IMG/VR virus record: IMGVR_UViG_3300015371_003138 | Location: 1-24,921 of that record | Source: a virus | Reading direction: 5' to 3' (one strand) | DNA length: 24,921 nt | Shown here: piece by piece, positions 430 to 16,540 of the stretch | Layout of the letters: each line of letters begins with the position of its first letter | Position numbering within the stretch: position 1 is the first letter of the stretch | Notes under the pieces: generated by a model | Databases searched by the model: none | What the model was told of the DNA's origin: nothing | The model's input: the letters and a program-made list of their open reading frames with translations, nothing else | Program-made: the position numbers and the translations under genes

Positions 430-503
430 GGGCGATGTCTGGTTAGTGGGGCAATTGACTTTTAATCAATAGGTCCAAGGTTCGAATCCTTGACGGCCCG
501 CCA
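430..503 (+). tRNA. tRNA-Lys(UUU)-like sequence, degenerate 5' half, probable pseudo-tRNA
   Basis: The 3' half is a good tRNA-Lys. The anticodon stem ATTGA/TCAAT (454-458/466-470) holds the loop CTTTTAA with anticodon TTT (461-463). The T-stem CAAGG/CCTTG flanks TTCGAAT, followed by acceptor ACGGCCC, discriminator G and encoded CCA (501-503). The 5' half fits badly: GGGCGAT (430-436) mismatches ACGGCCC at two positions and the D-arm is weak. Fragments of a proper 5' end (TGGCCG at 417-422, then AGCTC) sit slightly upstream, as if bases had been inserted. A decayed tRNA gene or a 3'-tRNA remnant of an integration event explains this best. A divergent functional tRNA is less likely. Confidence 0.6.
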
Positions 504-696: not shown

Positions 697-1536
697 ATGA
701 GCGCAGTATTGGGTGGGGCGGTACCCGTGGTCGGCGTGCTTGGGGCCGACGAAATCAAGGTCGAGATGTCGATGGGGCGCCTTATTCAAGGCGGAGATCC
801 GAAGCAGCTGCGCGGCTGCAGCTACGACCTTCGGATTGGGACCATCCTTTTTGATGATCAGATGCACTCCGGCGCGGATCGTCCAGTCGTGGTTCCCCCT
901 GGGGGACTCGTGTCGATCATGACCAAGGAAATCGTGGCGCTTCCCGACGACGTGTGTGCCACCGCATTCGCGATCAATCAGCTCAGTTCCAAGGGGTTCT
1001 TGGTCCTCAACCCCGGCCACGTTGATCCTGGGTTCGTGGGAGCCCTGACGATCAAGGCCCTGAATGTTCGCAAGGTGCCGATGACGCTAACGCTGGGCGC
1101 GAACATCTTCACCCTGATTTTCGAGCGTCTTCCTAAGCCCACGTTCGGCTACAAGCACAACAATCCGGATCATGACGAGCGCCTTCGCGCGTTTTACGCA
1201 ACGACGGTTGAGACGTCCCCCAAGACCCTTTTCGAAGTAATGAAGGGCGAAAAGGACGGGCCGTTCCCGAGTCGCGACGAAGTCGAGCGCATGATTAGAA
1301 ATCACTGGATGGGATGGCTGACCCTGTTTTTGGCGGGCGTCGCTGCCTACAAGGCGATCTTTCCTTCGGCCCCGGTCGAAATCAGCAAGCCTAGACCGAC
1401 TGCGCCTGCGGTCGCCCAATCGGTTGCCGCATCAGCGACACTCCACCTGCCGGCGGCACCATCGACAGCGGCCCCGGCTCCAACCCCTCCAGCTGCCAAA
1501 GACCCGACTGCGGGGAAAGCGAAAGATGGCAAGTAA
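697..1536 (+). CDS. Membrane-anchored dCTP deaminase/dUTPase-fold protein
   Basis: This 279-residue protein starts at ATG 697 behind GGGAGAGAGG. Residues about 15-145 resemble the trimeric dCTP deaminase/dUTPase fold, with RGCSYDLRIG at 39-48 (the SxDxRLG-type motif) and HVDPGFVGALTIKALN at 108-123. In Dcd enzymes the second motif carries the catalytic Glu (GxITLE). Here that position reads TIK, with Lys at 120, and the RSSxAR motif is not recognisable around 94-99, so ordinary deamination looks unlikely. A single membrane segment (about 205-222) is followed by an Ala/Pro-rich tail of about 55 residues. The gene overlaps the next by 11 bases. Dcd-fold enzymes alter dNTP pools, and deaminases of this kind act in anti-phage nucleotide depletion. 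A catalytically dead, membrane-tethered member could be a nucleotide sensor or an inhibitor or partner of the next gene product. Fold assignment is moderately sure; function is inference. Confidence 0.75.
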   Translation: MSAVLGGAVPVVGVLGADEIKVEMSMGRLIQGGDPKQLRGCSYDLRIGTILFDDQMHSGADRPVVVPPGGLVSIMTKEIVALPDDVCATAFAINQLSSKGFLVLNPGHVDPGFVGALTIKALNVRKVPMTLTLGANIFTLIFERLPKPTFGYKHNNPDHDERLRAFYATTVETSPKTLFEVMKGEKDGPFPSRDEVERMIRNHWMGWLTLFLAGVAAYKAIFPSAPVEISKPRPTAPAVAQSVAASATLHLPAAPSTAAPAPTPPAAKDPTAGKAKDGK

Positions 1537-2017
1537 CCGAGATCTGCGCCTTTTTGAGCTTGCCCGCTACGTGGGTGAGTGGAGCAAGGATCGGTCGCGA
1601 AAAGTTGGCGCGGTAATAGTCGACACGAAAGGTGGCGTGCGTGCGATCGGCTACAACGGATTTCCGCGTGGCGCAAATGACGCAATTGAGAGCCGGCACT
1701 CGCGTCCAACGAAGTACCTATGGACGGAACACGCTGAGCGAAATGCGATCTACGAGGCGGCAAGAGTCGGGGTGTCGACCGAAGGATGCACGATGTACGT
1801 GCCGTGGTTCCCATGCATGGATTGCGCCCGTGCGATCGTGCAGTCCGGCATTGCTCGTCTCGTCGCCCTTCCTCCAGACCTGAGTGACTCCCGATGGGGT
1901 GGGCACTTTGAGGCGGCGATGGAACTGTTATCCGAAGCTGGCATCGAAATCACTTGGATGACAGGCAGCGAATCGCCGCTGCCTGCAGATCTACAGACCG
2001 ATTTGTCTAGGAAGTAG
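1526..2017 (+). CDS. dCMP/cytidine deaminase-family zinc enzyme
   Basis: This 163-residue protein starts at ATG 1526, inside the end of the upstream gene (11-base overlap), which implies translational coupling. It carries the complete deoxycytidylate-deaminase signature: zinc ligands and catalytic Glu in TEHAERN (His69, Glu71), and PWFPCMDCA with Cys97 and Cys100. Upstream YNGFPRGAND (43-52) is the usual substrate-loop motif of dCMP deaminases. The expected reaction is dCMP to dUMP, or deamination of a related cytosine nucleotide, in the cytosol. It is close to the size of housekeeping dCMP deaminases. Its place between two membrane-protein genes in an island is unusual and suggests phage-responsive nucleotide depletion, as known for AvcD-type and dCTP-deaminase defence proteins. 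No ATPase domain like that of AvcD is present. Family assignment is very sure; the defence role is inferred. Confidence 0.92.
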   Translation: MASNRDLRLFELARYVGEWSKDRSRKVGAVIVDTKGGVRAIGYNGFPRGANDAIESRHSRPTKYLWTEHAERNAIYEAARVGVSTEGCTMYVPWFPCMDCARAIVQSGIARLVALPPDLSDSRWGGHFEAAMELLSEAGIEITWMTGSESPLPADLQTDLSRK

Positions 2018-2040: not shown

Positions 2041-2568
2041 ATGTCGGAGACAAGTTGGCTGGCGTATACCGGTGCAGTTGCCGGAATCATCGGCGCCATC
2101 ACCGGAATCGCAGGTGCGGTCACCGGCTATTACGCTCTTCGTCGGACTAGTGAGCTCAAGGCGCTCGACCTTCGCGTAGACCTGAGGCGAACTGAGAGCA
2201 CGTTGCGTGTAGACATTCAAGATCTCGTTCCGCTTCTGGAGCGCGCGAAGCGCTCTCGGACCAGACTCGCAGCCGCCCAAGGCAGGTACCGCTCCGGGGC
2301 GATTAGCCAGTGGCTGGTGGAATGGGATGCCGACTTGGCGGAAGCGAATTCACTGGTGTCTGGATCATCCGTCTTAGACGTCGACTGCACTGATTTCGCG
2401 GAGGCCAATCTTGAACTTCGACTGCTGGCCGTTCACAGGCTCCGAGATCAAGTGACACGCCTTTCCAAGAAGTACATCGACGCCATTGCGGAGGATGACC
2501 GCGGGCGAGATCACCTTCGTGAAGATCAGCGCGCCTTTACCCAAGCTCGCCTCGAGGGCAAAAAGTAG
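2041..2568 (+). CDS. Small membrane-anchored coiled-coil protein of the deaminase operon
   Basis: This 175-residue protein starts at ATG 2041 with GAGAGAGG just upstream, 23 bases after the deaminase stop. Residues about 8-33 are a Gly/Ala/Ile-rich hydrophobic segment (AGIIGAITGIAGAVTGYY), giving an N-terminal anchor. The rest is charged and largely helical, with heptad-like stretches around 38-75 and 120-170, so a cytoplasmic coiled coil is likely. I recognise no enzymatic motif. Its position as third gene of a tight operon with the Dcd-like membrane protein and the dCMP deaminase suggests a shared membrane-associated complex. It could be an effector, a scaffold or an immunity factor. The gene converges with the serine recombinase gene, leaving 35 bases between stops. 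Confidence 0.7.
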   Translation: MSETSWLAYTGAVAGIIGAITGIAGAVTGYYALRRTSELKALDLRVDLRRTESTLRVDIQDLVPLLERAKRSRTRLAAAQGRYRSGAISQWLVEWDADLAEANSLVSGSSVLDVDCTDFAEANLELRLLAVHRLRDQVTRLSKKYIDAIAEDDRGRDHLREDQRAFTQARLEGKK

Positions 2569-2603: not shown

Positions 2604-4298
2604 TCAGGGCCACAGTCTTACGAGGGTTGCCTGTTCCTCCCAGGAGATCGGGAACGACTCCTTGAAGGTGTCCATGACTGGGTACTGCAGCGTCCGGCCA
2701 GCCATGACGGCGTCAACGATCGCTGGCGCCAAACAGCCCGCCCGCAGCACGTCGTACAGATAGCTCTCGGCGCGCTTTTCTCGTGTCGCAAGCTCCTTCA
2801 GGGATCCCACGCTGCCGTTAATTAATTCCGCCGTCCATTTGCGGCCCAGGGCCACGCGCCGCAACAGCTCATTGCGCGCATCAGCGGTTGCGTTTGTCGC
2901 GTCTGTGCAATCGTCCCCCAAGATTCGCACCTCCCCGCGCAAGCGATACACCGAGGTGTTGATGGTTCGGGTGATGCGCGCTGCGGTGTCGTGGCCGGGC
3001 GGGGCGCCATCGGTGCCAAGAAGCAACTTCCTAAGGGCAGCGATCTCAACGTGAAATTTGATGTGACTGGCGGAAACCTCGACATTCGATCCGCATGTCT
3101 GGAAAGACTGCCGCTTCTCGCCTGTCGTGCGGGTCTCCCATTCCAGCGCAAGATCATGGCCCGCTCGCCTTAAGGCTTTCCCGCGGTTCGGTTCGCTCAC
3201 TCCAAGCAGGCTGTCCAAATCCTTTGCAGTGAGCAGCGCCCGCCACTCGTTTTCGACCAGGCGCTCCAAGTCGTGGGCAGGAATGCTTGCCAACGACGCC
3301 TTGGACTTTTCTCCCTCAGGTGTGGGGCGCAGCATGTAATAGCGATACCGCCTTCCGTGACGCTTTGTGTGTGTCGCCGTGAGTGGGTGGCCGGTGTCAG
3401 TACTCACCAGTCCGGCTAGGAGGCTTGAGGCCTTTGCACGGGTCTTAGTCTTGTGTGCTTGATGGTTGGCGTCGAGCTGATCTTGGACGGACTTCCAAAG
3501 CGCTTGCGGAATGATCGACTTGTGCTGGCCTGGGTAATGCTTGCCGGCGTGGTGGACCTCGCCGCAGTACAAGCGATTGCGCAAGAGATGATAGAGCGCC
3601 CCCCGTGTGAAGCGCTGCCCGCCGCTTCGATTACCTGCGCGGCTCACGCGAACCTTCGACTTGGTGCCGCTTGCTTCGAGATCGAGCATGAGCTTCTGCA
3701 CGCAGCCAAGCACCAGATATCTCTTGAAGATCTTTCGAACGGTCTCCGCCTCGTTCGTGTTGACGACAAGGGCGCGATCTTTGAGGTCGTACCCCAAGGG
3801 AATGGGGCCGCCCATCCACATGCCTTTGGCTTTGGATGCCGCGACCTTGTCCCGAATGCGCTCTCCGGTCACCTCACGCTCGAACTGCGCGAAGGACAGC
3901 AGGACGTTGAGCGTGAGCCGTCCCATGGACGTGGTGGTGTTGAAGCGCTGGGTCACGGAGACGAACGACGTGCTGTGCTTGTCGAAAACGTCGACCATCT
4001 TTGCGAAGTCAGTCAGGGATCGGGTCAGTCGATCGATCTTGTAGACCACGACCAGGTCGACGTGCCCGGCATTGATGTCCTCCAAGAGCTTCTGCAGGGC
4101 AGGGCGCTGGAGATTGCCCCCGGAGTACCCGCCATCGTCGTAGCGCTTGCTGAGGGCCTTCCAACCCTCGTGGCGCTGGCTGGCGATATAAGCCTCACAG
4201 GCTTCGCGTTGGGCATCGAGTGAGTTGAAGTTCTGGTCGAGGCCTTCCTCGGTGGATTTGCGCGTGTAGATGGCGCACCGCAGGACCTTCTGGCTCAT
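2604..4298 (-). CDS. Large serine recombinase
   Basis: This 564-residue protein has the order of a large serine integrase. The N-terminal resolvase domain contains IYTRKSTEEG with nucleophile Ser15, then SLDAQREACEAYI and the YKIDRLTRSLTDF segment. The long E-helix region (FAQFEREVTGERIRDK) leads into a recombinase domain around 160-290 (GPIPLGYDL, TRGALYHLLRNRLYCGEV) and a C-terminal extension. The C-terminal region lacks the obvious CxxC zinc ribbon seen in many relatives. It should cut and rejoin short attachment sites to integrate or excise this element. Its ATG overlaps the stop of the DUF2924 gene in an ATGA, so the two are co-translated. The pairing of such recombinases with DUF2924 proteins is recurrent in prophage-like elements. 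I could not identify its att sites. Confidence 0.95.
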   Translation of the reverse strand: MSQKVLRCAIYTRKSTEEGLDQNFNSLDAQREACEAYIASQRHEGWKALSKRYDDGGYSGGNLQRPALQKLLEDINAGHVDLVVVYKIDRLTRSLTDFAKMVDVFDKHSTSFVSVTQRFNTTTSMGRLTLNVLLSFAQFEREVTGERIRDKVAASKAKGMWMGGPIPLGYDLKDRALVVNTNEAETVRKIFKRYLVLGCVQKLMLDLEASGTKSKVRVSRAGNRSGGQRFTRGALYHLLRNRLYCGEVHHAGKHYPGQHKSIIPQALWKSVQDQLDANHQAHKTKTRAKASSLLAGLVSTDTGHPLTATHTKRHGRRYRYYMLRPTPEGEKSKASLASIPAHDLERLVENEWRALLTAKDLDSLLGVSEPNRGKALRRAGHDLALEWETRTTGEKRQSFQTCGSNVEVSASHIKFHVEIAALRKLLLGTDGAPPGHDTAARITRTINTSVYRLRGEVRILGDDCTDATNATADARNELLRRVALGRKWTAELINGSVGSLKELATREKRAESYLYDVLRAGCLAPAIVDAVMAGRTLQYPVMDTFKESFPISWEEQATLVRLWP

Positions 4299-9674: not shown

Positions 9675-9689
9675 AGTCGACGGTCGACT
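9675..9689. repeat. Palindrome AGTCGAC-g-GTCGACT
   Basis: A perfect 7-bp dyad with a single central base overlaps the stop codon of the vsr gene (9688-9690, minus strand). It lies at the border between the phage-like module and the restriction-modification island. Function unknown; a protein-binding site or recombination scar are possibilities. Confidence 0.5.
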
Positions 9690-10179
9690 AGGCATCAACA
9701 TTATCGCTCTCCACCTTGGCGTGTTTGCCTCCACCGCCTCTGATTTCGATCGTTGGTGAGCTTTCGCCTAGCCACTGAGCCACATCGAGCGCGACCTCGT
9801 TCGCGTTAGCCAACTTGCCGCGTAAAGCGCACTCCCACACCACGGCGATTCGCCAACCCAAGGCAGATAGGGCCTGCTCGTTTCGGTTATCGATTGCGCG
9901 ATTACGTTCGATCTTCGCCAGCCAGAACTCGGGGCGAGTGGCAGGCACCTTAAACAACGGACAATCATGGCCATGCCAGAAGCATCCGTGGACAAAGACT
10001 ACTGCCTTGTAGCGGGGCAAGTAGATATCCGGTTTGCCTGGAAGATTTCGCTCATGGAGGCGGTAACGGAAGCCGAGGGCGTGCAGTGCCCGGCGTAACA
10101 CCATCTCCGGCTTGGTGTTCGCGGAGCGGATGCCAGACATCATCCGGCTCCGTACCTCGGCTGACACGACATCTGCCAT
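9688..10179 (-). CDS. vsr: Very short patch repair endonuclease Vsr
   Basis: This 163-residue protein is a near-canonical Vsr. The catalytic KPD has Asp51, matching the residue number in E. coli Vsr, and FVHGCFWHGH places His64, Phe67, Trp68 and His69 in the known metal-binding and mismatch-intercalating positions. SRMMSGIRSANTKPE and a Cys/His zinc site (Cys66, His71, Cys73) also fit. It nicks beside T:G mismatches that arise when 5-methylcytosine deaminates. It begins 6 bases after the methyltransferase stop and has no good ribosome binding site of its own, which implies translational coupling. The C-terminus is slightly extended with a Gly-rich tail. Some Vsr-fold proteins serve as the restriction nuclease itself, so that remains a second option. 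Confidence 0.95.
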   Translation of the reverse strand: MADVVSAEVRSRMMSGIRSANTKPEMVLRRALHALGFRYRLHERNLPGKPDIYLPRYKAVVFVHGCFWHGHDCPLFKVPATRPEFWLAKIERNRAIDNRNEQALSALGWRIAVVWECALRGKLANANEVALDVAQWLGESSPTIEIRGGGGKHAKVESDNVDA

Positions 10180-10185
10180 GACGAT

Positions 10186-11445
10186 CTACGCGGCCACGTT
10201 CAATCGGGGCTGCATGACTCCACCGGCCTCCCGGCCTTTCAGTTCGACGATTCGGGGCGCCATGATTTTGGCGACTGCTTCCATCACGTCCACCACAACG
10301 CTATTGCCAAACTGTTTGTAGGCCTGCGTGTCGCTCACGACGATCTCAAAGTCATCGGGAAAACCCATGAGGCGCGCGCATTCGCGCGGCGTGAGTCGCC
10401 GGGGCCGTTTCCCCTTGCCGCGATAAATCAGAATCTCACTGCCATCCTTGTAATAGCGGGCCGAGAGCGTACGGGTATAACGGTGCTCTCCAGGCTTAAC
10501 AAGTCCATATCCAAATCCATTTCCCGCCGCCTGGTGTTTGGCCGCATAGCTCTTGAGGTACGTCCATAAGTTCTCGGTGAGAACATATTTTGGATTCACC
10601 TTGGACAATGGCCCGGAAGTGAAGGGGCCCTCGGCCGGCTCGCTGCCATCTTCGGGGTGCAGGATCTGTGTGATGTCTGGCCCTTGTTCGGGAAGCCGCA
10701 AATCCTCCCAAGTGAAATCTGTGTTGTCTCGGAAACCGACGATAAGAATTCGCTCCCGGTGCTGCGGCACGAAGTGCTTTGCGTCAACAACTTTGTAGTG
10801 AATCCTGTAGCCCAGCTTGTTCTCCAGAACATCCCTGATTACGCGGAACGTGTTCCCTTTGTCGTGGCTGACCAGATTCTTGACATTTTCAAGCAAGAAC
10901 GCCTTGGGGCGCTTTGCGGCGATGATTCGCTCAATGTCGAAGAACAGAGTCCCTTGCGTCGTACAGTCAAATCCATGAGGACGACCTAGCGCATTCTTCT
11001 TGCTCACGCCGGCCAGTGAAAATGGCTGGCACGGGAAGCCCGCCAGCAACACGTCGTGATCCGGTACGTCGTTCGCGTCCACCTGGGTGATGTCACCGAC
11101 GATCGGATGATGCTCACCGAAATGGTTCCTATATGTCCGGCATGACCATTCATTCCATTCGCTGGTGAACACGCATCTGCCGCCCGCTCTCTCGAACCCC
11201 ATTCGAATGCCGCCGATCCCCGCGAAAAGATCAATGAACGAGAAGGCGGAATCTTCGGCCTGAGCCGACTTGCTGACCCCAAGGATTTCCTGGAGAGCAG
11301 GTACGACCATCGGCGGGCAGCGCGTTTCGCCGCGCTCCCACCTCGAGATGGTGCGGGAGGTGGTCTGCAGGCGCTCGGCGACCCTCTGCTGAGTCATCAG
11401 CTGGCGAACCTTAAGAAGGAGGTCGCGAGGACTCAATTGGCTCAT
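10186..11445 (-). CDS. DNA cytosine-5 methyltransferase with N-terminal HTH
   Basis: This 419-residue protein joins an XRE-like helix-turn-helix (about 8-58; TQQRVAERLQTTSRTISRWERGE) to a complete cytosine-5 methyltransferase. Visible motifs are I, DLFAGIGG (72-79); IV, GFPCQPFS with catalytic Cys139; VI, ENVK (186-189); VIII, QHRER (228-232); and X, QFGNSVV near the C-terminus. The recognition region lies between about 240 and 340. It would protect host DNA from the divergent restriction genes. Methyltransferases with an N-terminal HTH often repress their own promoter and sometimes the restriction genes. Here a GACAG-T-CTGTC dyad lies 25 bases upstream of the start. AGAGG precedes the ATG. 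The vsr gene follows directly. Confidence 0.96.
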   Translation of the reverse strand: MSQLSPRDLLLKVRQLMTQQRVAERLQTTSRTISRWERGETRCPPMVVPALQEILGVSKSAQAEDSAFSFIDLFAGIGGIRMGFERAGGRCVFTSEWNEWSCRTYRNHFGEHHPIVGDITQVDANDVPDHDVLLAGFPCQPFSLAGVSKKNALGRPHGFDCTTQGTLFFDIERIIAAKRPKAFLLENVKNLVSHDKGNTFRVIRDVLENKLGYRIHYKVVDAKHFVPQHRERILIVGFRDNTDFTWEDLRLPEQGPDITQILHPEDGSEPAEGPFTSGPLSKVNPKYVLTENLWTYLKSYAAKHQAAGNGFGYGLVKPGEHRYTRTLSARYYKDGSEILIYRGKGKRPRRLTPRECARLMGFPDDFEIVVSDTQAYKQFGNSVVVDVMEAVAKIMAPRIVELKGREAGGVMQPRLNVAA

Positions 11446-11469
11446 GCATTGCCTCTGGGTATTTTTCCG

Positions 11470-11480
11470 GACAGTCTGTC
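11470..11480. promoter_or_regulatory. GACAG-t-CTGTC dyad, candidate methyltransferase operator
   Basis: An 11-base perfect dyad sits 25 bases before the methyltransferase start and overlaps its putative -10 box. Its symmetry suits a dimer of the XRE-like N-terminal domain of that methyltransferase, giving autoregulation. The link to the protein is inferred. Confidence 0.5.
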
Positions 11481-11501
11481 TGACGAGATTCCCCCGGTCA
11501 A
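11473..11501 (-). promoter_or_regulatory. Candidate promoter for the methyltransferase-vsr operon
   Basis: On the minus strand TTGACC (11496-11501) is followed after 17 bases by CAGACT (11473-11478), a weak -10 that keeps the key A and T positions. The -10 lies inside the GACAG-t-CTGTC dyad, so bound repressor would block it. Confidence 0.4.
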
Positions 11502-11733
11502 CAGGCTAAGTGGGCGCCAAGGGGCTGGTGGAAGCGGGGAAGGCGCGGCATGCCTAAGGCATCATGGGCCGTCATCGTCATGAAGGCTGATCTCACCTGC
11601 CGAGATGCAGGACTCCGACCATGTGCCTGGTCGAGGGCGAGCACCTGGACGCGTGTTTAGTCCGAGTGCCAGAATGCTTTGGGGTTCTGGCTTCGTGTAC
11701 CGGTGGCAGGGGTGATTTTCGGTAGGGAGCGAC

Positions 11734-13638
11734 GTGACGGGGCGGGTGAATCAATTTCCACGATGGGAACGGCGCGACAGGGCGCTCTTTCTCGTAGATG
11801 CAGAAGGGACTGAGGTCCATTCGACGGCGGATGATATTTATCGCGCCCTGGTCGAACGACAGCCCATTGAGGGAATGGTCGAGGGTCGCGCTCCCCCAGG
11901 CCTCAAGTTCTCCCGGTACCCCCTGATTCCCGCGCTTGTGCTGGAATTGAATGAAGACGGACACCCCGAACTTACTCTGCGAGGGCAAAGTCGGGGGACG
12001 GTGGAAGCACTATCAGTTGTCGATCTTGCCCGTGGCCATGTAGCACTGGGAGACACCTGGTATCCGATTGACGCAGTTGTTTCGTCGGAAATCGCTGAAC
12101 TGTTGAAGGACGCCTCCGCCGCACTCGGCGCGTGCTCACTGCAAACCTTTCTCCGCATGCGCACGATGGCTGCGGCAGATGGTCCAGTGGAAGATCTGAT
12201 CGGCGACAGGTCAGTTTCCCCTCTCGCTTTTACCCCTTCCGGCGACGACCAGCCTCGCGTTGACGCCAGGCTCTATCCCTATCAGCTTGCTGGCTGGCGC
12301 TGGTTGCGTTTCATTCGCGCCGAAGGCTTGGGCGGTCTGCTTGCAGACGAGATGGGCTTGGGCAAGACCCTGCAGGTTATCGCCGCGATCCGTGATCCTG
12401 GCGCGGATGCCCGCGGGCCATGCCTGATAGTCGCTCCCGGGTCGCTTCTGGAGAACTGGCGGAGGGAGTTCGCGCGATTCGCGCCAACGCTGAGCACGCT
12501 AAAGCACCATGGGCACTCCCGCACTGGGCGCCCTGCCGAACTGCAAGAGTACGACGTGGTGATCACGTCCTATGAAAATGTAGTTCGGGACAACAGCCTG
12601 CTCAACATGATTGAGTGGGACATGGTCGTGCTCGACGAGGCGCAGTTCATCCGGAACCCAGACGCGCAGAGAACCAGGGCCGCCAAGCGCCTACGTCGCC
12701 GCGTGGGGATTGCCGTGACCGGCACTCCCGTTGAAAACCGCCTGCTGGACCTGTGGTCCATAATCGATTTCGTGCTTCCCAACCAGCTGGGAGACCGCCA
12801 GTCATTCGAGGCAAATGTCCACGATGATGTGGAAAGCGCAAGCCGCCTTGAGTCCGAAGTCTCACCTTTCATGTTGCGTCGCCGCCTGGCGGATGTGGCC
12901 CAGGATTTGCCGGAACGGATTGACATTCCCCAAGTCATCGATCTCTCCGAAGAAGAAGCAGTCCTCTATGACGAAACGCGAGATCGAATTGCGAACGAAT
13001 ACGGCGCAGCGGCCACGCTAGTAGCGCTGACCGAGTTGCGCCAGTTCTGCGCTCATCCGGAGCTGCTACTCAAGAATGCCGAGAGTGACCCACTGCGTTT
13101 CAGCAAGTTCCAGCGCCTTGACGAGATCCTGCGGGAAATCTTCCAAAGAAACGAAAAGGTCTTGGTCTTTACCTCGTTCACGGGTATGGCCGACATGATT
13201 GCCGAGCACGTGAAGTTCTCCCTGCACGCCTTCGTGGGAATTATCGACGGGCGTCTTCCGATCGATGAACGTCAGCCTCTCATCGACCATTTTTTTGCTG
13301 TGCAGGGGGCTGCCGCGCTCGTCCTCAACCCGCGTGCGGGTGGCGCCGGCCTAAATATCACCGCGGCCAACCATGTAATTCACTACAACCCGGAGTGGAA
13401 TCCCGCCCTCGAGGATCAGGCCTCGGCTCGCGCCCACCGACGAGGTCAGGAGTTGCCTGTGACGATCCATCGCCTCGTAGCAGCCGATACGGTCGAGGAT
13501 GTGATTGCCGAACGTCTTCAGCGAAAGCGCGCAATTGCAGACACTGCCGTCGTGGGCGTCGCCGGCAAGGACGACGACTACGCAGATATCATTTCGGCGC
13601 TAAGCCGTTCGCCGTCACGCAAGAAATTGGGGTCCTGA
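11734..13638 (+). CDS. SNF2/SWI2-type ATPase (DEAQ helicase-like)
   Basis: This 634-residue protein starts at GTG 11734, with AGGGAG 4 bases upstream. After an N-terminal region of about 170 residues unique to this subgroup, it has a full Snf2 motor. LYPYQLAGWRWL precedes Walker A DEMGLGKT (205-212). The second RecA-like motif is DEAQ (301-304), followed by VTGTPVENRLLDLWSI, then LVFTSFTGM, NPRAGGAGLNITAANHV and QASARAHRRGQ (562-572). Such motors translocate on duplex DNA and remodel bound proteins. In R-M operons they likely move the restriction complex to tell modified from unmodified DNA. The stop shares one base with the next start (TGATG), so the five-gene operon is tightly coupled from here. 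It is divergent from the methyltransferase. Confidence 0.95.
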   Translation: MTGRVNQFPRWERRDRALFLVDAEGTEVHSTADDIYRALVERQPIEGMVEGRAPPGLKFSRYPLIPALVLELNEDGHPELTLRGQSRGTVEALSVVDLARGHVALGDTWYPIDAVVSSEIAELLKDASAALGACSLQTFLRMRTMAAADGPVEDLIGDRSVSPLAFTPSGDDQPRVDARLYPYQLAGWRWLRFIRAEGLGGLLADEMGLGKTLQVIAAIRDPGADARGPCLIVAPGSLLENWRREFARFAPTLSTLKHHGHSRTGRPAELQEYDVVITSYENVVRDNSLLNMIEWDMVVLDEAQFIRNPDAQRTRAAKRLRRRVGIAVTGTPVENRLLDLWSIIDFVLPNQLGDRQSFEANVHDDVESASRLESEVSPFMLRRRLADVAQDLPERIDIPQVIDLSEEEAVLYDETRDRIANEYGAAATLVALTELRQFCAHPELLLKNAESDPLRFSKFQRLDEILREIFQRNEKVLVFTSFTGMADMIAEHVKFSLHAFVGIIDGRLPIDERQPLIDHFFAVQGAAALVLNPRAGGAGLNITAANHVIHYNPEWNPALEDQASARAHRRGQELPVTIHRLVAADTVEDVIAERLQRKRAIADTAVVGVAGKDDDYADIISALSRSPSRKKLGS

Positions 13639-14054
13639 TGGAGCGTCAGATCGCAAAGTTGCTCAGTGCCAATGACACCGGCGAAACAGGTGGGCATCAG
13701 GCGGGGATTCTGATTCCTCGAGACAATCAACTGCTGTCTTTTTTTCCCGCCCTTGATCCTGGCGTGCTGAACCCGCGATGCCACATCCGCTTCGTGGACG
13801 AAACAGGAACGTTCTGGGAATTCGCCTTTATCTATTACAACAACAAGTTTTTTGGGGGCACCAGAAACGAGTACCGGCTGACGCGAATGACAAAGTTCAT
13901 CAGGCAGGCGGGTCTGGTGCAGGGGGATGATCTCGTGCTAACGGAAAACAACGGCAGGTACCGCGTCAACGTTCGCCGGAAGAGAGACGCATCCGCGCAG
14001 CAGAGTGGTGTCCTCAAACTGGGAAGTGGTTGGCGTGTCGTCAAACTAGGTTGA
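13638..14054 (+). CDS. EcoRII-N/B3-like DNA-binding protein
   Basis: This 138-residue protein starts at ATG 13638, overlapping the SNF2 stop by one base. LLSANDTGETGGHQAGILIP (8-27) and NKFFGGTRNEYRLTRMTKF match what I know of the EcoRII N-terminal effector-binding domain, a DNA-binding pseudobarrel related to plant B3 and NgoFVII C-terminal domains. A GDDLVL strand and a basic C-terminus follow. There is no nuclease catalytic motif, so this is a stand-alone recognition subunit, possibly giving sequence specificity to the GHKL/HNH restriction machinery. In EcoRII the domain is fused to the nuclease, so separation into its own gene is notable. Fold assignment is by motif memory and moderately sure. 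Confidence 0.8.
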   Translation: MERQIAKLLSANDTGETGGHQAGILIPRDNQLLSFFPALDPGVLNPRCHIRFVDETGTFWEFAFIYYNNKFFGGTRNEYRLTRMTKFIRQAGLVQGDDLVLTENNGRYRVNVRRKRDASAQQSGVLKLGSGWRVVKLG

Positions 14055-14067
14055 TAAGGGGATTGCA

Positions 14068-15675
14068 ATGACTGTTGAGGAGTTTGAGCTTCCGCCTGAT
14101 CCGGAACGGGTCATCGTTGGTTTGCGCGATACCGGCTACGAGTTTGAAACGGCGGTGGCGGACATTGTTGATAACTCTATTGCTGCCAATGCCACCAAAG
14201 TGGATCTATGGCTCGGCGCTGACCACCGGGGCAACATCCGGCTGTCAATCGTGGATAACGGCGACGGGATGGATCGCCTTGGCCTGATCAACGCAATGCA
14301 GTACGGCTCAAGGGCGCGACCCAGTGCCGCGAGCTTGGGCAAGTATGGGTTGGGTCTGAAGACGGCCTCCACGGCATTCTGCAAAAGGCTTTCCGTGGTC
14401 TCCCGGCCTGACGGAAAGACTTCTCCGTTGATGGCGACGTGGGACCTCATGCACGTCGCTCATGCAAAGAAGTGGTCGCTCCTGCTTACGGCTGACTGTG
14501 ATCCGGAGGCCATTGAATACCTCGATGAACTGGCGCCCGGCCACTCGGGCACGGTTGTGCTGTGGGACGACGTGGACCGTCTGATAAAGGAATACCAGAA
14601 CAGAAATGGCACGCCCGCAAAGAAGGCCCTCCGCACAAAAGAGGCTAGCCTTCGCCGCCACCTTGCGATGGTGTACCAGCGCTTCCTTGATCCAAATGAC
14701 ATGCGCGCCCGCGATGTCACGATTCGCCTGAATGGCGCAGCCGTGGACGCATGGGACCCGTTCCAGCGAGGGCTCTCCGAGCTGGTGGCTCAGGAAGAAA
14801 TCGTTACGGAACTGCCGGACGGAAAAAAAGCTGCGTTCACGGTGCGCGCCTACATTCTTCCTCGCCGGGAAGAGTTTCCGGACGACAAATTGGCGCAGGC
14901 GGCCCAACTTTCGAACGACCGGCAGGGCATCTACATCTATCGCGAAAATCGATTGATTCACGACGCCGACTGGCTGGGCCTCTATCAGAAGGAGCCGCAC
15001 CTCACGTTGCTGCGAGTCGAATTCTCCTTCGACCATAAGCTCGACGATGCGTTTCACCTCGACATCAAGAAGTCGCAGATCATTCTCAACGATGATCTGG
15101 CCGAGTGGCTGCAGAAGCAGTTTCTTCCTGCTCCTCGCAGGGAGGCAAACAATCGTTCGCGAGAGGGCCAGCAGAAGCGAATTACCCAGCAGAGCGCCGG
15201 TGCGCACGACAACTCCAACAGCAACATTCGGAACCGGCAGGCCGCCGCGGGCGGCGCAAGGGTAACCGCAACCGATCCATCGAAGGGGGAGGCGGAAATC
15301 CAGAACAAGCATGGCGTCTTCCGGCTGAAGTTGCCGCTATCAACTGCCAAACGCCCCGGCGAGGTATTTGTCCAGCCCGTCGAAGGCATCAACAATGGCT
15401 TGCTGTTTCAACCTGCGCTGGTTGACCAAAACCGGGCGGTGCAGCTGAACACCAGTCACCCCTACTATCACAAGGTGTACGTCCCAAATCTCAACCGAAG
15501 CGTCACGCTGCAGGGACTCGATTCACTCATGTGGGCTTTGTGCGTTGCCGAACTGACCACTGTCCAGGACACAACCGCCAGCATGTTCCAGGACATGCGC
15601 TACGAGATTTCACGCATTCTGGAGAAGCTCGTGGAAACGTTGCCCGAGCCGGGAGCGGATGAGGATGACGCTTAA
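14068..15675 (+). CDS. GHKL ATPase, MutL/MORC/Hsp90-like
   Basis: This 535-residue protein begins with a GHKL ATP-binding domain. The N-box is VADIVDNSIAANA (30-42; Asp32 stands where many relatives have Glu, and Asn36 should bind Mg). G1 is VDNGDGM (62-68) and G2 is GKYGLGLKTAS (91-101). A transducer-like S5 region follows, with RQGIYIYRENRLI and DIKKSQI, its Lys probably contacting the ATP gamma phosphate. A low-complexity Gln/Asn/Ser-rich linker (about 352-395) leads to a C-terminal domain, perhaps for dimerisation. ATP binding would close a clamp on DNA. This is the type described in MutL/MORC-like R-M systems. AAGGGG precedes the ATG, and the gene overlaps the HNH gene by 17 bases. Confidence 0.93.
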   Translation: MTVEEFELPPDPERVIVGLRDTGYEFETAVADIVDNSIAANATKVDLWLGADHRGNIRLSIVDNGDGMDRLGLINAMQYGSRARPSAASLGKYGLGLKTASTAFCKRLSVVSRPDGKTSPLMATWDLMHVAHAKKWSLLLTADCDPEAIEYLDELAPGHSGTVVLWDDVDRLIKEYQNRNGTPAKKALRTKEASLRRHLAMVYQRFLDPNDMRARDVTIRLNGAAVDAWDPFQRGLSELVAQEEIVTELPDGKKAAFTVRAYILPRREEFPDDKLAQAAQLSNDRQGIYIYRENRLIHDADWLGLYQKEPHLTLLRVEFSFDHKLDDAFHLDIKKSQIILNDDLAEWLQKQFLPAPRREANNRSREGQQKRITQQSAGAHDNSNSNIRNRQAAAGGARVTATDPSKGEAEIQNKHGVFRLKLPLSTAKRPGEVFVQPVEGINNGLLFQPALVDQNRAVQLNTSHPYYHKVYVPNLNRSVTLQGLDSLMWALCVAELTTVQDTTASMFQDMRYEISRILEKLVETLPEPGADEDDA

Positions 15676-16540
15676 CGCGGGGTCTCTCGCGGCCCGGATC
15701 TCCGCAGAAACCGGGCTGGAATTTTCAGGGAGCGGCGGGAGGGCGGCGGACGGCACGCATTCGTATCAGCTGCGGCCCGCGCATCATCCCGCAGCGCATA
15801 CGTTCGTCCTGCACGTGCAGGTCGGCTGGCGAAACATTGACCTTTCCTTTCGCCCCGGAAGCTTTTCAGGTGAACTGATCCAGGCGATGGGAGAGGCTGA
15901 CCGAAGCGGCCAGGCTGCATTTGTTTCAGTCCTTCGCAGCAATCAGGAAAACGGCGCTCAGATCGACTTCGATTTGAATGGTCAGCGATGCCCTTATGAC
16001 GCCGCGGGTATTTGGGCCCTGTCCTGGCAGAACATGACGCTGTCGATGCGCAAGGGAATGCTGCCCATCAACGATGGGAACGCGGCAGCAGACGAAGAAA
16101 TTGTCGGTAGCTGGGTAGCTCGTTTGACCGCCGCAATCGTGGCATTGCTACCGTTGGAGGCAGATGAGGATCTAGATATCGTCAATCCTGCCGAAACCGC
16201 GACGGGGCTTCCTGAGGGGGCAAGAATTGCGGTGATCGTGAACCGTTATGAGCGTGACCGTCGAAACAGGGCCGCCGCATTGGCGATTCACGGCCATGTC
16301 TGCAAAGCATGCGACACCGACATGGGATATCGATATGGTTCAGCGGCTGCAGGCCTCATTGAAGTTCATCACGTCACGCCGGTCTCGCAGATTGGTCCAG
16401 ATCACCTCGTCGACCCGCGGACGGACCTTGTGCCGCTTTGCCCCAACTGCCACGCAGTAGCCCATCGGCGCGATCCCCCGTACACCGTTGCGGAGCTGCG
16501 CGCTTTGATAAATATCGCCACCGCGGAAATCATCGTATGA
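15659..16540 (+). CDS. HNH endonuclease of the restriction operon
   Basis: This 293-residue protein has an HNH nuclease domain at its C-terminus. CKAC (215-218) and CPNCH (261-265) hold structural zinc, IEVHHVTP (234-241) carries the catalytic His, and CHAVAHR ends the beta-beta-alpha-metal fold, as in McrA-type nucleases. The N-terminal 170 residues form an unrecognised domain that probably binds DNA or the partner ATPase. GGGAG lies just upstream; ATG 15659 or the in-frame ATG 15665 (better spacing) could be the start. The gene overlaps the GHKL gene by 17 bases and the HEPN gene by 4 bases, so the products should be made in fixed ratio. It is the best candidate for the DNA-cleaving subunit of the system. 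Confidence 0.93.
   Translation: MRMTLNAGSLAARISAETGLEFSGSGGRAADGTHSYQLRPAHHPAAHTFVLHVQVGWRNIDLSFRPGSFSGELIQAMGEADRSGQAAFVSVLRSNQENGAQIDFDLNGQRCPYDAAGIWALSWQNMTLSMRKGMLPINDGNAAADEEIVGSWVARLTAAIVALLPLEADEDLDIVNPAETATGLPEGARIAVIVNRYERDRRNRAAALAIHGHVCKACDTDMGYRYGSAAAGLIEVHHVTPVSQIGPDHLVDPRTDLVPLCPNCHAVAHRRDPPYTVAELRALINIATAEIIV

What the first reader, a model, noticed from the sequence alone, without database searches (positions are those of the whole stretch)
1033..1065. Catalytic Glu of the dCTP deaminase fold replaced by Lys
The segment after DPGF reads GALTIKALN where Dcd enzymes have GxITLE; the Glu position is Lys120. The upstream RSSxAR motif is also not recognisable. The fold motifs are kept, so the protein may bind nucleotide without deaminating it, as a sensor or as a regulator of the neighbouring active deaminase.
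Basis: partly seen in the sequence, partly recalled or inferred. Interest (0 to 1): 0.65.

Follow-up and report, generated by a model that had tools for sequence, protein, structure and literature searches.

The report
Membrane-anchored dCTP-deaminase-like protein without catalytic glutamate
A prophage-like element carries a protein with the fold of a nucleotide enzyme whose catalytic residues are gone and which has gained a probable membrane anchor, next to an intact nucleotide deaminase; the same membrane-anchored, catalytically empty design recurs across several bacterial phyla beside changing nucleotide enzymes, which points to a nucleotide-sensing, possibly anti-phage, module.

Summary
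Window 697-1536 (+) encodes a 279-aa dCTP-deaminase-fold (DCD) protein. Lys120 (1054-1056) aligns with the catalytic Glu138 of E. coli Dcd, and RSSxxR reads INQLSS. It is not a one-off. In 26 such proteins (window included) none keeps the Glu, while all 50 parsed non-TM DCDs fetched as controls do. The replacing residue differs by subfamily (Ser, Val, Leu, Thr, Ala, Gly, Arg, Lys), so Lys itself is not conserved. TM-DCD genes sit beside swappable nucleotide enzymes: dCMP deaminase (window and one alphaproteobacterium), ThyA, ThyX, 5-hmdU-kinase-like, MazG, methyltransferase/PurA, flavin oxidoreductase (21 of 26 loci within 1.2 kb; 0 of 50 controls). The window operon lies between tRNA-Lys and a serine recombinase, on an element that also carries an Mza-like/restriction cassette. 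Best reading: a cytosolic, non-deaminating nucleotide-binding domain on a membrane anchor, sensing a nucleotide made or removed by its partner; probably anti-phage. Fold, Glu loss, anchor and neighbourhood are computed here; ligand, trigger and output are inferred.

The parts
697..1536 (+). TM-DCD gene: DCD-fold protein with C-terminal membrane helix, 279 aa (P0001)
   Evidence: Pfam DCD 1e-12; AF2 model and Foldseek
727..1146 (+). DCD-fold domain, residues 11-150
   Evidence: AF2 pLDDT mostly 79-94
973..990 (+). INQLSS (residues 93-98), in place of the RSSxxR motif
1024..1035 (+). retained DPGF; D110 corresponds to the conserved Asp of DCD and dUTPase
1054..1056 (+). Lys120 codon at the position of catalytic Glu138 of E. 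coli Dcd
1273..1359 (+). predicted long helix, residues 193-221, the likely membrane anchor (basic residues before it, Pro/Ala-rich tail after it)
   Evidence: AF2 helix 193-221; same place as the TM helices of relatives; hydropathy alone below the 1.6 cut
1526..2017 (+). dCMP-deaminase family protein, 163 aa (P0002), HAE and PCxxC intact, start codon inside the TM-DCD gene
2041..2568 (+). 175-aa protein with N-terminal hydrophobic segment (P0003), probable third operon gene, family unknown
432..503 (+). tRNA-Lys(ttt), possible element end; no repeat of its sequence found in the window
2604..4298 (-). large serine recombinase next to the operon
   Evidence: Pfam Resolvase, Recombinase

Best explanation
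P0001 is a non-deaminating DCD-fold protein anchored in the inner membrane, with the DCD domain in the cytosol. The partner enzyme, here a dCMP-type deaminase, makes or removes the nucleotide that the DCD pocket senses; on phage-induced change in the pool the trimeric DCD domain would change state and act through its membrane helices, or hold and release the deaminase at the membrane. Shown here: fold, loss of the Glu and RSSxxR, a predicted helix at the membrane-anchor position, operon structure, and family-wide linkage to nucleotide enzymes. Inferred: trimer (from the solved DCD family), ligand binding, which nucleotide, that the trigger is phage, and that the output is at the membrane.
For: Glu lost in 26 of 26 TM-bearing DCDs and kept in 50 of 50 parsed non-TM DCDs. 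TM-DCDs split from canonical DCDs on one branch, 97/96 support, or 94/89 with the active-site columns masked. 21 of 26 TM-DCD loci have a nucleotide-enzyme partner within 1.2 kb, often overlapping by 4 bp, against 0 of 50 canonical loci. Partners include two diverged dCMP-deaminase cases (window, L086), ThyA, ThyX, HMUDK, MazG/MazG_C, methyltransferase, PurA-kinase and OYE-like proteins. Genomes with a TM-DCD carry separate DCD-family genes as well. The setting is mobile and defence-like: between tRNA-Lys and a serine recombinase, with Vsr/C5-MTase/SNF2/MzaB-like/HNH genes on the same element; S. meliloti relatives lie beside a patatin/nucleotidyltransferase pair and one Rhizobium relative beside AAA-ATPase and UvrD-helicase genes. 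Precedents: dITP as an immune signal in Kongming (PMC12948488); thymidylate synthase and 5hmdU kinase validated, and dUTPase and MazG predicted, as defence domains (PMC13092281).
Against: No binding or phage assay exists. The phosphate-binding RSSxxR motif is also lost, so triphosphate binding may be weak or absent. The TM call for P0001 rests on an AF2 helix and on analogy; its hydropathy is below the cut used. The window's two-gene pairing is matched at only one other locus, where the genes are divergent. P0001 is a long branch and its exact place among TM-DCDs is unsure. The single split on the tree means the TM/Glu association is one evolutionary event, not many.
Confidence: 0.5

Rival explanations
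1. P0001 is chiefly a membrane tether and regulator (activator or inhibitor) of the co-translated deaminase, binding dCTP, dTTP or dUTP and gating deamination; the deaminase is the effector that drains dCMP/dCTP.
For: Start of the deaminase gene inside the DCD gene; second pairing in L086; P0002's deaminase domain matches the anti-phage dCTP deaminase profiles NF041025 and PDLC02373.
Against: In most relatives the partner is not a deaminase although the TM-DCD is constant; P0002 lacks the remainder of the anti-phage dCTP deaminase and scores 74 against a cut-off of 400.
Confidence: 0.25
2. P0001 is a live dUTPase or other dNTP pyrophosphatase that lost only deamination.
For: Thermococcus dUTPase 8y1w is among the best structural matches (TM-score 0.80 by target length) and has Met at the Glu position; the DPGF Asp is kept.
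Against: That dUTPase keeps RSSLAR, P0001 does not; P0001 is below the Pfam dUTPase cut-off (18.9 against 22) and far below NCBIfam dut.
Confidence: 0.13
3. The operon is metabolic cargo (pyrimidine salvage or phage DNA hypermodification) with no immune role, and the TM-DCD only senses dNTP pools for it.
For: Partner families include ThyA, HMUDK and MazG, known from phage base hypermodification and pool cleaning (family knowledge).
Against: Each locus has only one to four of these enzymes, no complete pathway; a membrane anchor is not expected; neighbourhoods are mobile and defence-like.
Confidence: 0.1
4. A decaying duplicate of a housekeeping DCD.
For: All catalytic motifs are lost in P0001.
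Against: The frame is open for 279 codons and fused to an added C-terminal helix; the same loss is shared by 25 relatives of several phyla with intact frames.
Confidence: 0.02

Closest known systems
dCTP deaminase Dcd / bifunctional DCD-DUT (TIGR02274, Pfam PF22769; E. coli 1xs1, B. halodurans 4xjc, M. tuberculosis 2qlp)
   Same: Fold and DPGF, T-x-E and Asn landmarks; closest by sequence and structure.
   Different: Catalytic Glu is Lys, RSSxxR is INQLSS, and there is an added C-terminal helix; below the TIGR02274 cut-off (61 against 93).
DCD-like archaeal dUTPase (8y1w, 9ln0)
   Same: DCD fold with the Glu position changed (Met).
   Different: Keeps RSSLAR; soluble, single-domain enzyme.
Anti-phage dCTP deaminase (NF041025; PADLOC dCTPase)
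   Same: P0002 shares its zinc deaminase domain.
   Different: Different fold from DCD; P0002 is 163 aa against profiles of 437 and 630 positions and matches only the deaminase part.
Nucleotide-modification defence cassettes (DefensePredictor: thymidylate synthase and 5hmdU kinase validated; MazG, MazG-C, dUTPase predicted; PMC13092281)
   Same: The same partner families recur beside TM-DCDs.
   Different: The text held does not describe a membrane-anchored DCD without its Glu, nor pairing with a dCMP deaminase; its figures and the 2015 survey it cites (PMC4678834) could not be read.
Kongming (KomABC)
   Same: A deaminase-type enzyme makes a non-canonical nucleotide that is read by another protein (PMC12948488).
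   Different: Adenine-derived dITP and an NAD+-depleting effector; no DCD fold and no membrane anchor (own knowledge for the last point).

Membership tests
dCTP deaminase (Dcd, TIGR02274) | catalytic Glu (E. coli Glu138) | tested here: not met
   K120, ungapped alignment to 4xjc
dCTP deaminase (Dcd, TIGR02274) | RSSxxR motif | tested here: not met
   INQLSS
dCTP deaminase (Dcd, TIGR02274) | equivalog score cut-off 92.8 | tested here: not met
   61.3
DCD superfamily (fold, PF22769) | DCD fold and Pfam gathering score | tested here: met
   48.9 against 27; AF2 and Foldseek
dUTPase | Pfam PF00692 cut-off | tested here: not met
   18.9 against 22
dUTPase | Ser/Arg of motif 2 | tested here: not met
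   INQLSS
dUTPase | motif-3 Asp | tested here: met
   D110
dUTPase | dUTP hydrolysis | not testable with these tools
   needs an assay
TM-DCD family (defined in this report) | DCD fold without the catalytic Glu | tested here: met
TM-DCD family (defined in this report) | C-terminal membrane helix | tested here: inconclusive
   AF2 helix 193-221 at the expected place, but hydropathy below the 1.6 cut
TM-DCD family (defined in this report) | adjacent nucleotide enzyme | tested here: met
   dCMP deaminase, overlapping gene
TM-DCD family (defined in this report) | groups with TM-DCDs, not canonical DCDs | tested here: inconclusive
   on the TM side of a 97/96 or 94/89 branch, but a long branch
Anti-phage dCTP deaminase (for P0002) | full-length NF041025 profile | tested here: not met
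   74 against 400, deaminase part only

The most novel reading that the evidence does not exclude
TM-DCDs are a new class of nucleotide-gated membrane effectors: a catalytically emptied DCD trimer on membrane helices reads a non-canonical deoxynucleotide made by a swappable partner enzyme (deaminase, ThyA, ThyX, kinase, methyltransferase, flavin reductase), and the residue at the old catalytic Glu position sets which base is read.
Probability: 0.3. Interest if true: 0.85.

Novelty: new variant of a known kind. Interest (0 to 1): 0.6.

Why it matters
A nucleotide enzyme fold stripped of catalysis, tied to the membrane and paired with interchangeable nucleotide enzymes would be a modular sensor for phage-altered nucleotide pools. 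It would link scattered candidate defence genes (thymidylate synthases, 5hmdU-kinase-like proteins, MazG, dCMP deaminases) to one shared reader, and makes a direct prediction: ligand specificity should follow the residue that replaced the catalytic Glu.

Tried and rejected
Single-protein scans with P0001 of viral and genome contigs found no relative, nor did tblastn on phages; alignment A1 was needed. P0003 gave no relative in viral contigs and no family. The viral-contig relatives of P0002 have no DCD-fold neighbour, so the deaminase alone is not a marker of the module. Plasmid hits from Priestia filamentosa and Nonomuraea, and the viral contig L010, are ordinary DCDs with Glu. Alignment A2 was too diverse for a scan. 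A pseudogene reading was rejected (shared loss, open frames). No direct repeat of the tRNA-Lys region was found in the window, so element ends stay open. A C-terminal tail motif check did not separate the groups. One DCD place per locus was parsed by motif; 22 DCD-like proteins that did not fit the motif pattern were left out of the table.

Full report
What is there. The frame from ATG 697 to the stop at 1536 encodes 279 residues. Pfam finds the DCD fold (E 1e-12); the dCTP deaminase equivalog model is well below its cut-off (61.3 against 92.8), and the dUTPase model is below its own (18.9 against 22). Lys120, codon 1054-1056, aligns without a gap from DPGF to the catalytic Glu of the DCD-DUT enzyme 4xjc, and RSSVGR aligns with INQLSS. 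AlphaFold2 on an 11-row alignment gives a confident DCD domain at residues ~11-150 and a long helix at 193-221. Foldseek ranks M. tuberculosis and B. halodurans DCD-DUT first, with a Thermococcus DCD-like dUTPase also high.

Why losing the Glu alone is not enough to say 'inactive'. The Thermococcus protein filed as 'dCTP deaminase' in one chain name is a dUTPase and has Met at the Glu position, but it keeps RSSLAR. P0001 has lost both, so deamination is very unlikely and dUTPase activity unlikely; neither was assayed.

The family. A plasmid search and an alignment-based genome scan found DCD-fold proteins of 205-356 residues with a C-terminal hydrophobic helix in rhizobia, Blastococcus, Priestia, Bacteroidota, Methylomonas, a Bacillota MAG and a Zixiibacteriota MAG. 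In the table, 23 proteins pass the TM cut. Three more belong by inspection: L032, whose TM segment starts just before the cut-off position; L070, with a hydrophobic C-terminus; and the window protein, whose helix comes from the AF2 model and fails the hydropathy cut. None of the 26 keeps Glu. The other 50 parsed DCDs, fetched as controls or by-catch, all keep it. The replacing residue goes with subfamily: Ser beside most HMUDK-type partners, Val beside MazG/flavin oxidoreductase, Leu beside the methyltransferase, Ala and Lys in the two dCMP-deaminase cases. Subfamilies are clades, so this is a hypothesis about specificity, not a statistical result.

Tree. TM-DCDs and canonical DCDs fall on two sides of one branch (97/96; 98% of bootstrap trees). 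With the Glu and RSSxxR columns masked and the longest rows left out the split stays at 94/89. The window protein lies on the TM side, weakly grouped with the deaminase-linked L075/L086 protein and the methyltransferase-linked clade, but on a long branch. Because the split is a single event, the TM/Glu association cannot be counted as many independent cases.

Neighbours. Within 1.2 kb, 21 of 26 TM-DCD loci have a gene of one of the partner families, and 0 of 50 canonical loci do. The partner list was drawn from the TM loci, so the contrast is descriptive; several links nevertheless hold across phyla, for instance DCD/methyltransferase in Blastococcus and rhizobia. The most complete case is L077: HMUDK, MazG-MazG_C, ThyA and TM-DCD in one direction. 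L150 pairs a TM-DCD with ThyX, 4 bp overlapping. L086 pairs one head-to-head with a dCMP-type deaminase 40% identical to the window's over 123 aligned residues. Genomes with a TM-DCD mostly carry other DCD-family genes besides.

Window setting. The deaminase start (1526) lies inside the TM-DCD gene; its HAE and PCxxC motifs are intact. A 175-aa protein with an N-terminal hydrophobic segment follows 24 bp later. The three genes lie between tRNA-Lys (432-503) and a large serine recombinase (2604-4298, -). At 9688-16540 the element also carries Vsr, C5-methyltransferase, SNF2 helicase, MzaB-like ATPase and HNH genes.

How it most likely works. Shown: fold, loss of catalytic residues, predicted helix, operon, family-wide linkage. 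Inferred from the DCD family: trimer and base pocket. Inferred from setting and precedent: nucleotide sensing in phage conflict. The precedents are Kongming, where a non-canonical nucleotide is the signal (PMC12948488), and DefensePredictor, where thymidylate synthase and 5hmdU kinase domains were validated and MazG, MazG-C and dUTPase domains predicted as defensive (PMC13092281). The constant element is the TM-DCD and the variable one is the enzyme, which favours the TM-DCD as reader or effector and the enzyme as maker or remover of the ligand. Basic residues before the helix suggest a cytosolic DCD domain. Whether the output is a membrane lesion or control of the partner enzyme is open.

Known or new. 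It is not a Dcd or a dUTPase by the tests made. It works like, and probably belongs among, nucleotide-centred conflict systems, in which a 'dUTPase' domain has already been predicted. A membrane-anchored DCD without its Glu was not described in the text I could search; the 2015 survey by Burroughs and colleagues was not held, and figures are not held. Hence 'new variant of a known kind'.

Noticed in passing
window 9688-16540: Second defence-like cassette: Vsr, C5-methyltransferase with HTH, SNF2 helicase (ZorD/DpdE-like), GHKL ATPase (MzaB-like), HNH protein, and an open frame at 13485-14054 with a type II restriction enzyme profile match.
   Followed up: partly
L086:5512-6876: TM-DCD and dCMP-type deaminase head-to-head in an alphaproteobacterium: the only other TM-DCD/deaminase pair found.
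   Followed up: yes
L150:4637-6321: TM-DCD overlapping a ThyX-type flavin-dependent thymidylate synthase gene by 4 bp.
   Followed up: partly
L077:5806-9567: Four-gene run HMUDK, MazG-MazG_C, ThyA, TM-DCD, all in one direction.
   Followed up: partly
L078:5489-6900: TM-DCD followed by a macro-domain protein.
   Followed up: no
L003:1817-5839: S. meliloti plasmid: TM-DCD, MazG-like and OYE-like genes directly after a patatin/nucleotidyltransferase pair that resembles CBASS.
   Followed up: no
L025:8076-9677 and L002:5945-7558: Fusion of a P-loop kinase-like domain to an adenylosuccinate synthetase, next to TM-DCD and methyltransferase genes.
   Followed up: no
L031:5348-5938, L076, L080, L008: A 137-196-aa family without a Pfam match directly upstream of TM-DCD genes; may be MazG-like by its helix pattern.
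   Followed up: no
PDB 8y1w: Chain named 'dCTP deaminase' in one list is a Thermococcus dUTPase with Met at the catalytic Glu position.
   Followed up: partly
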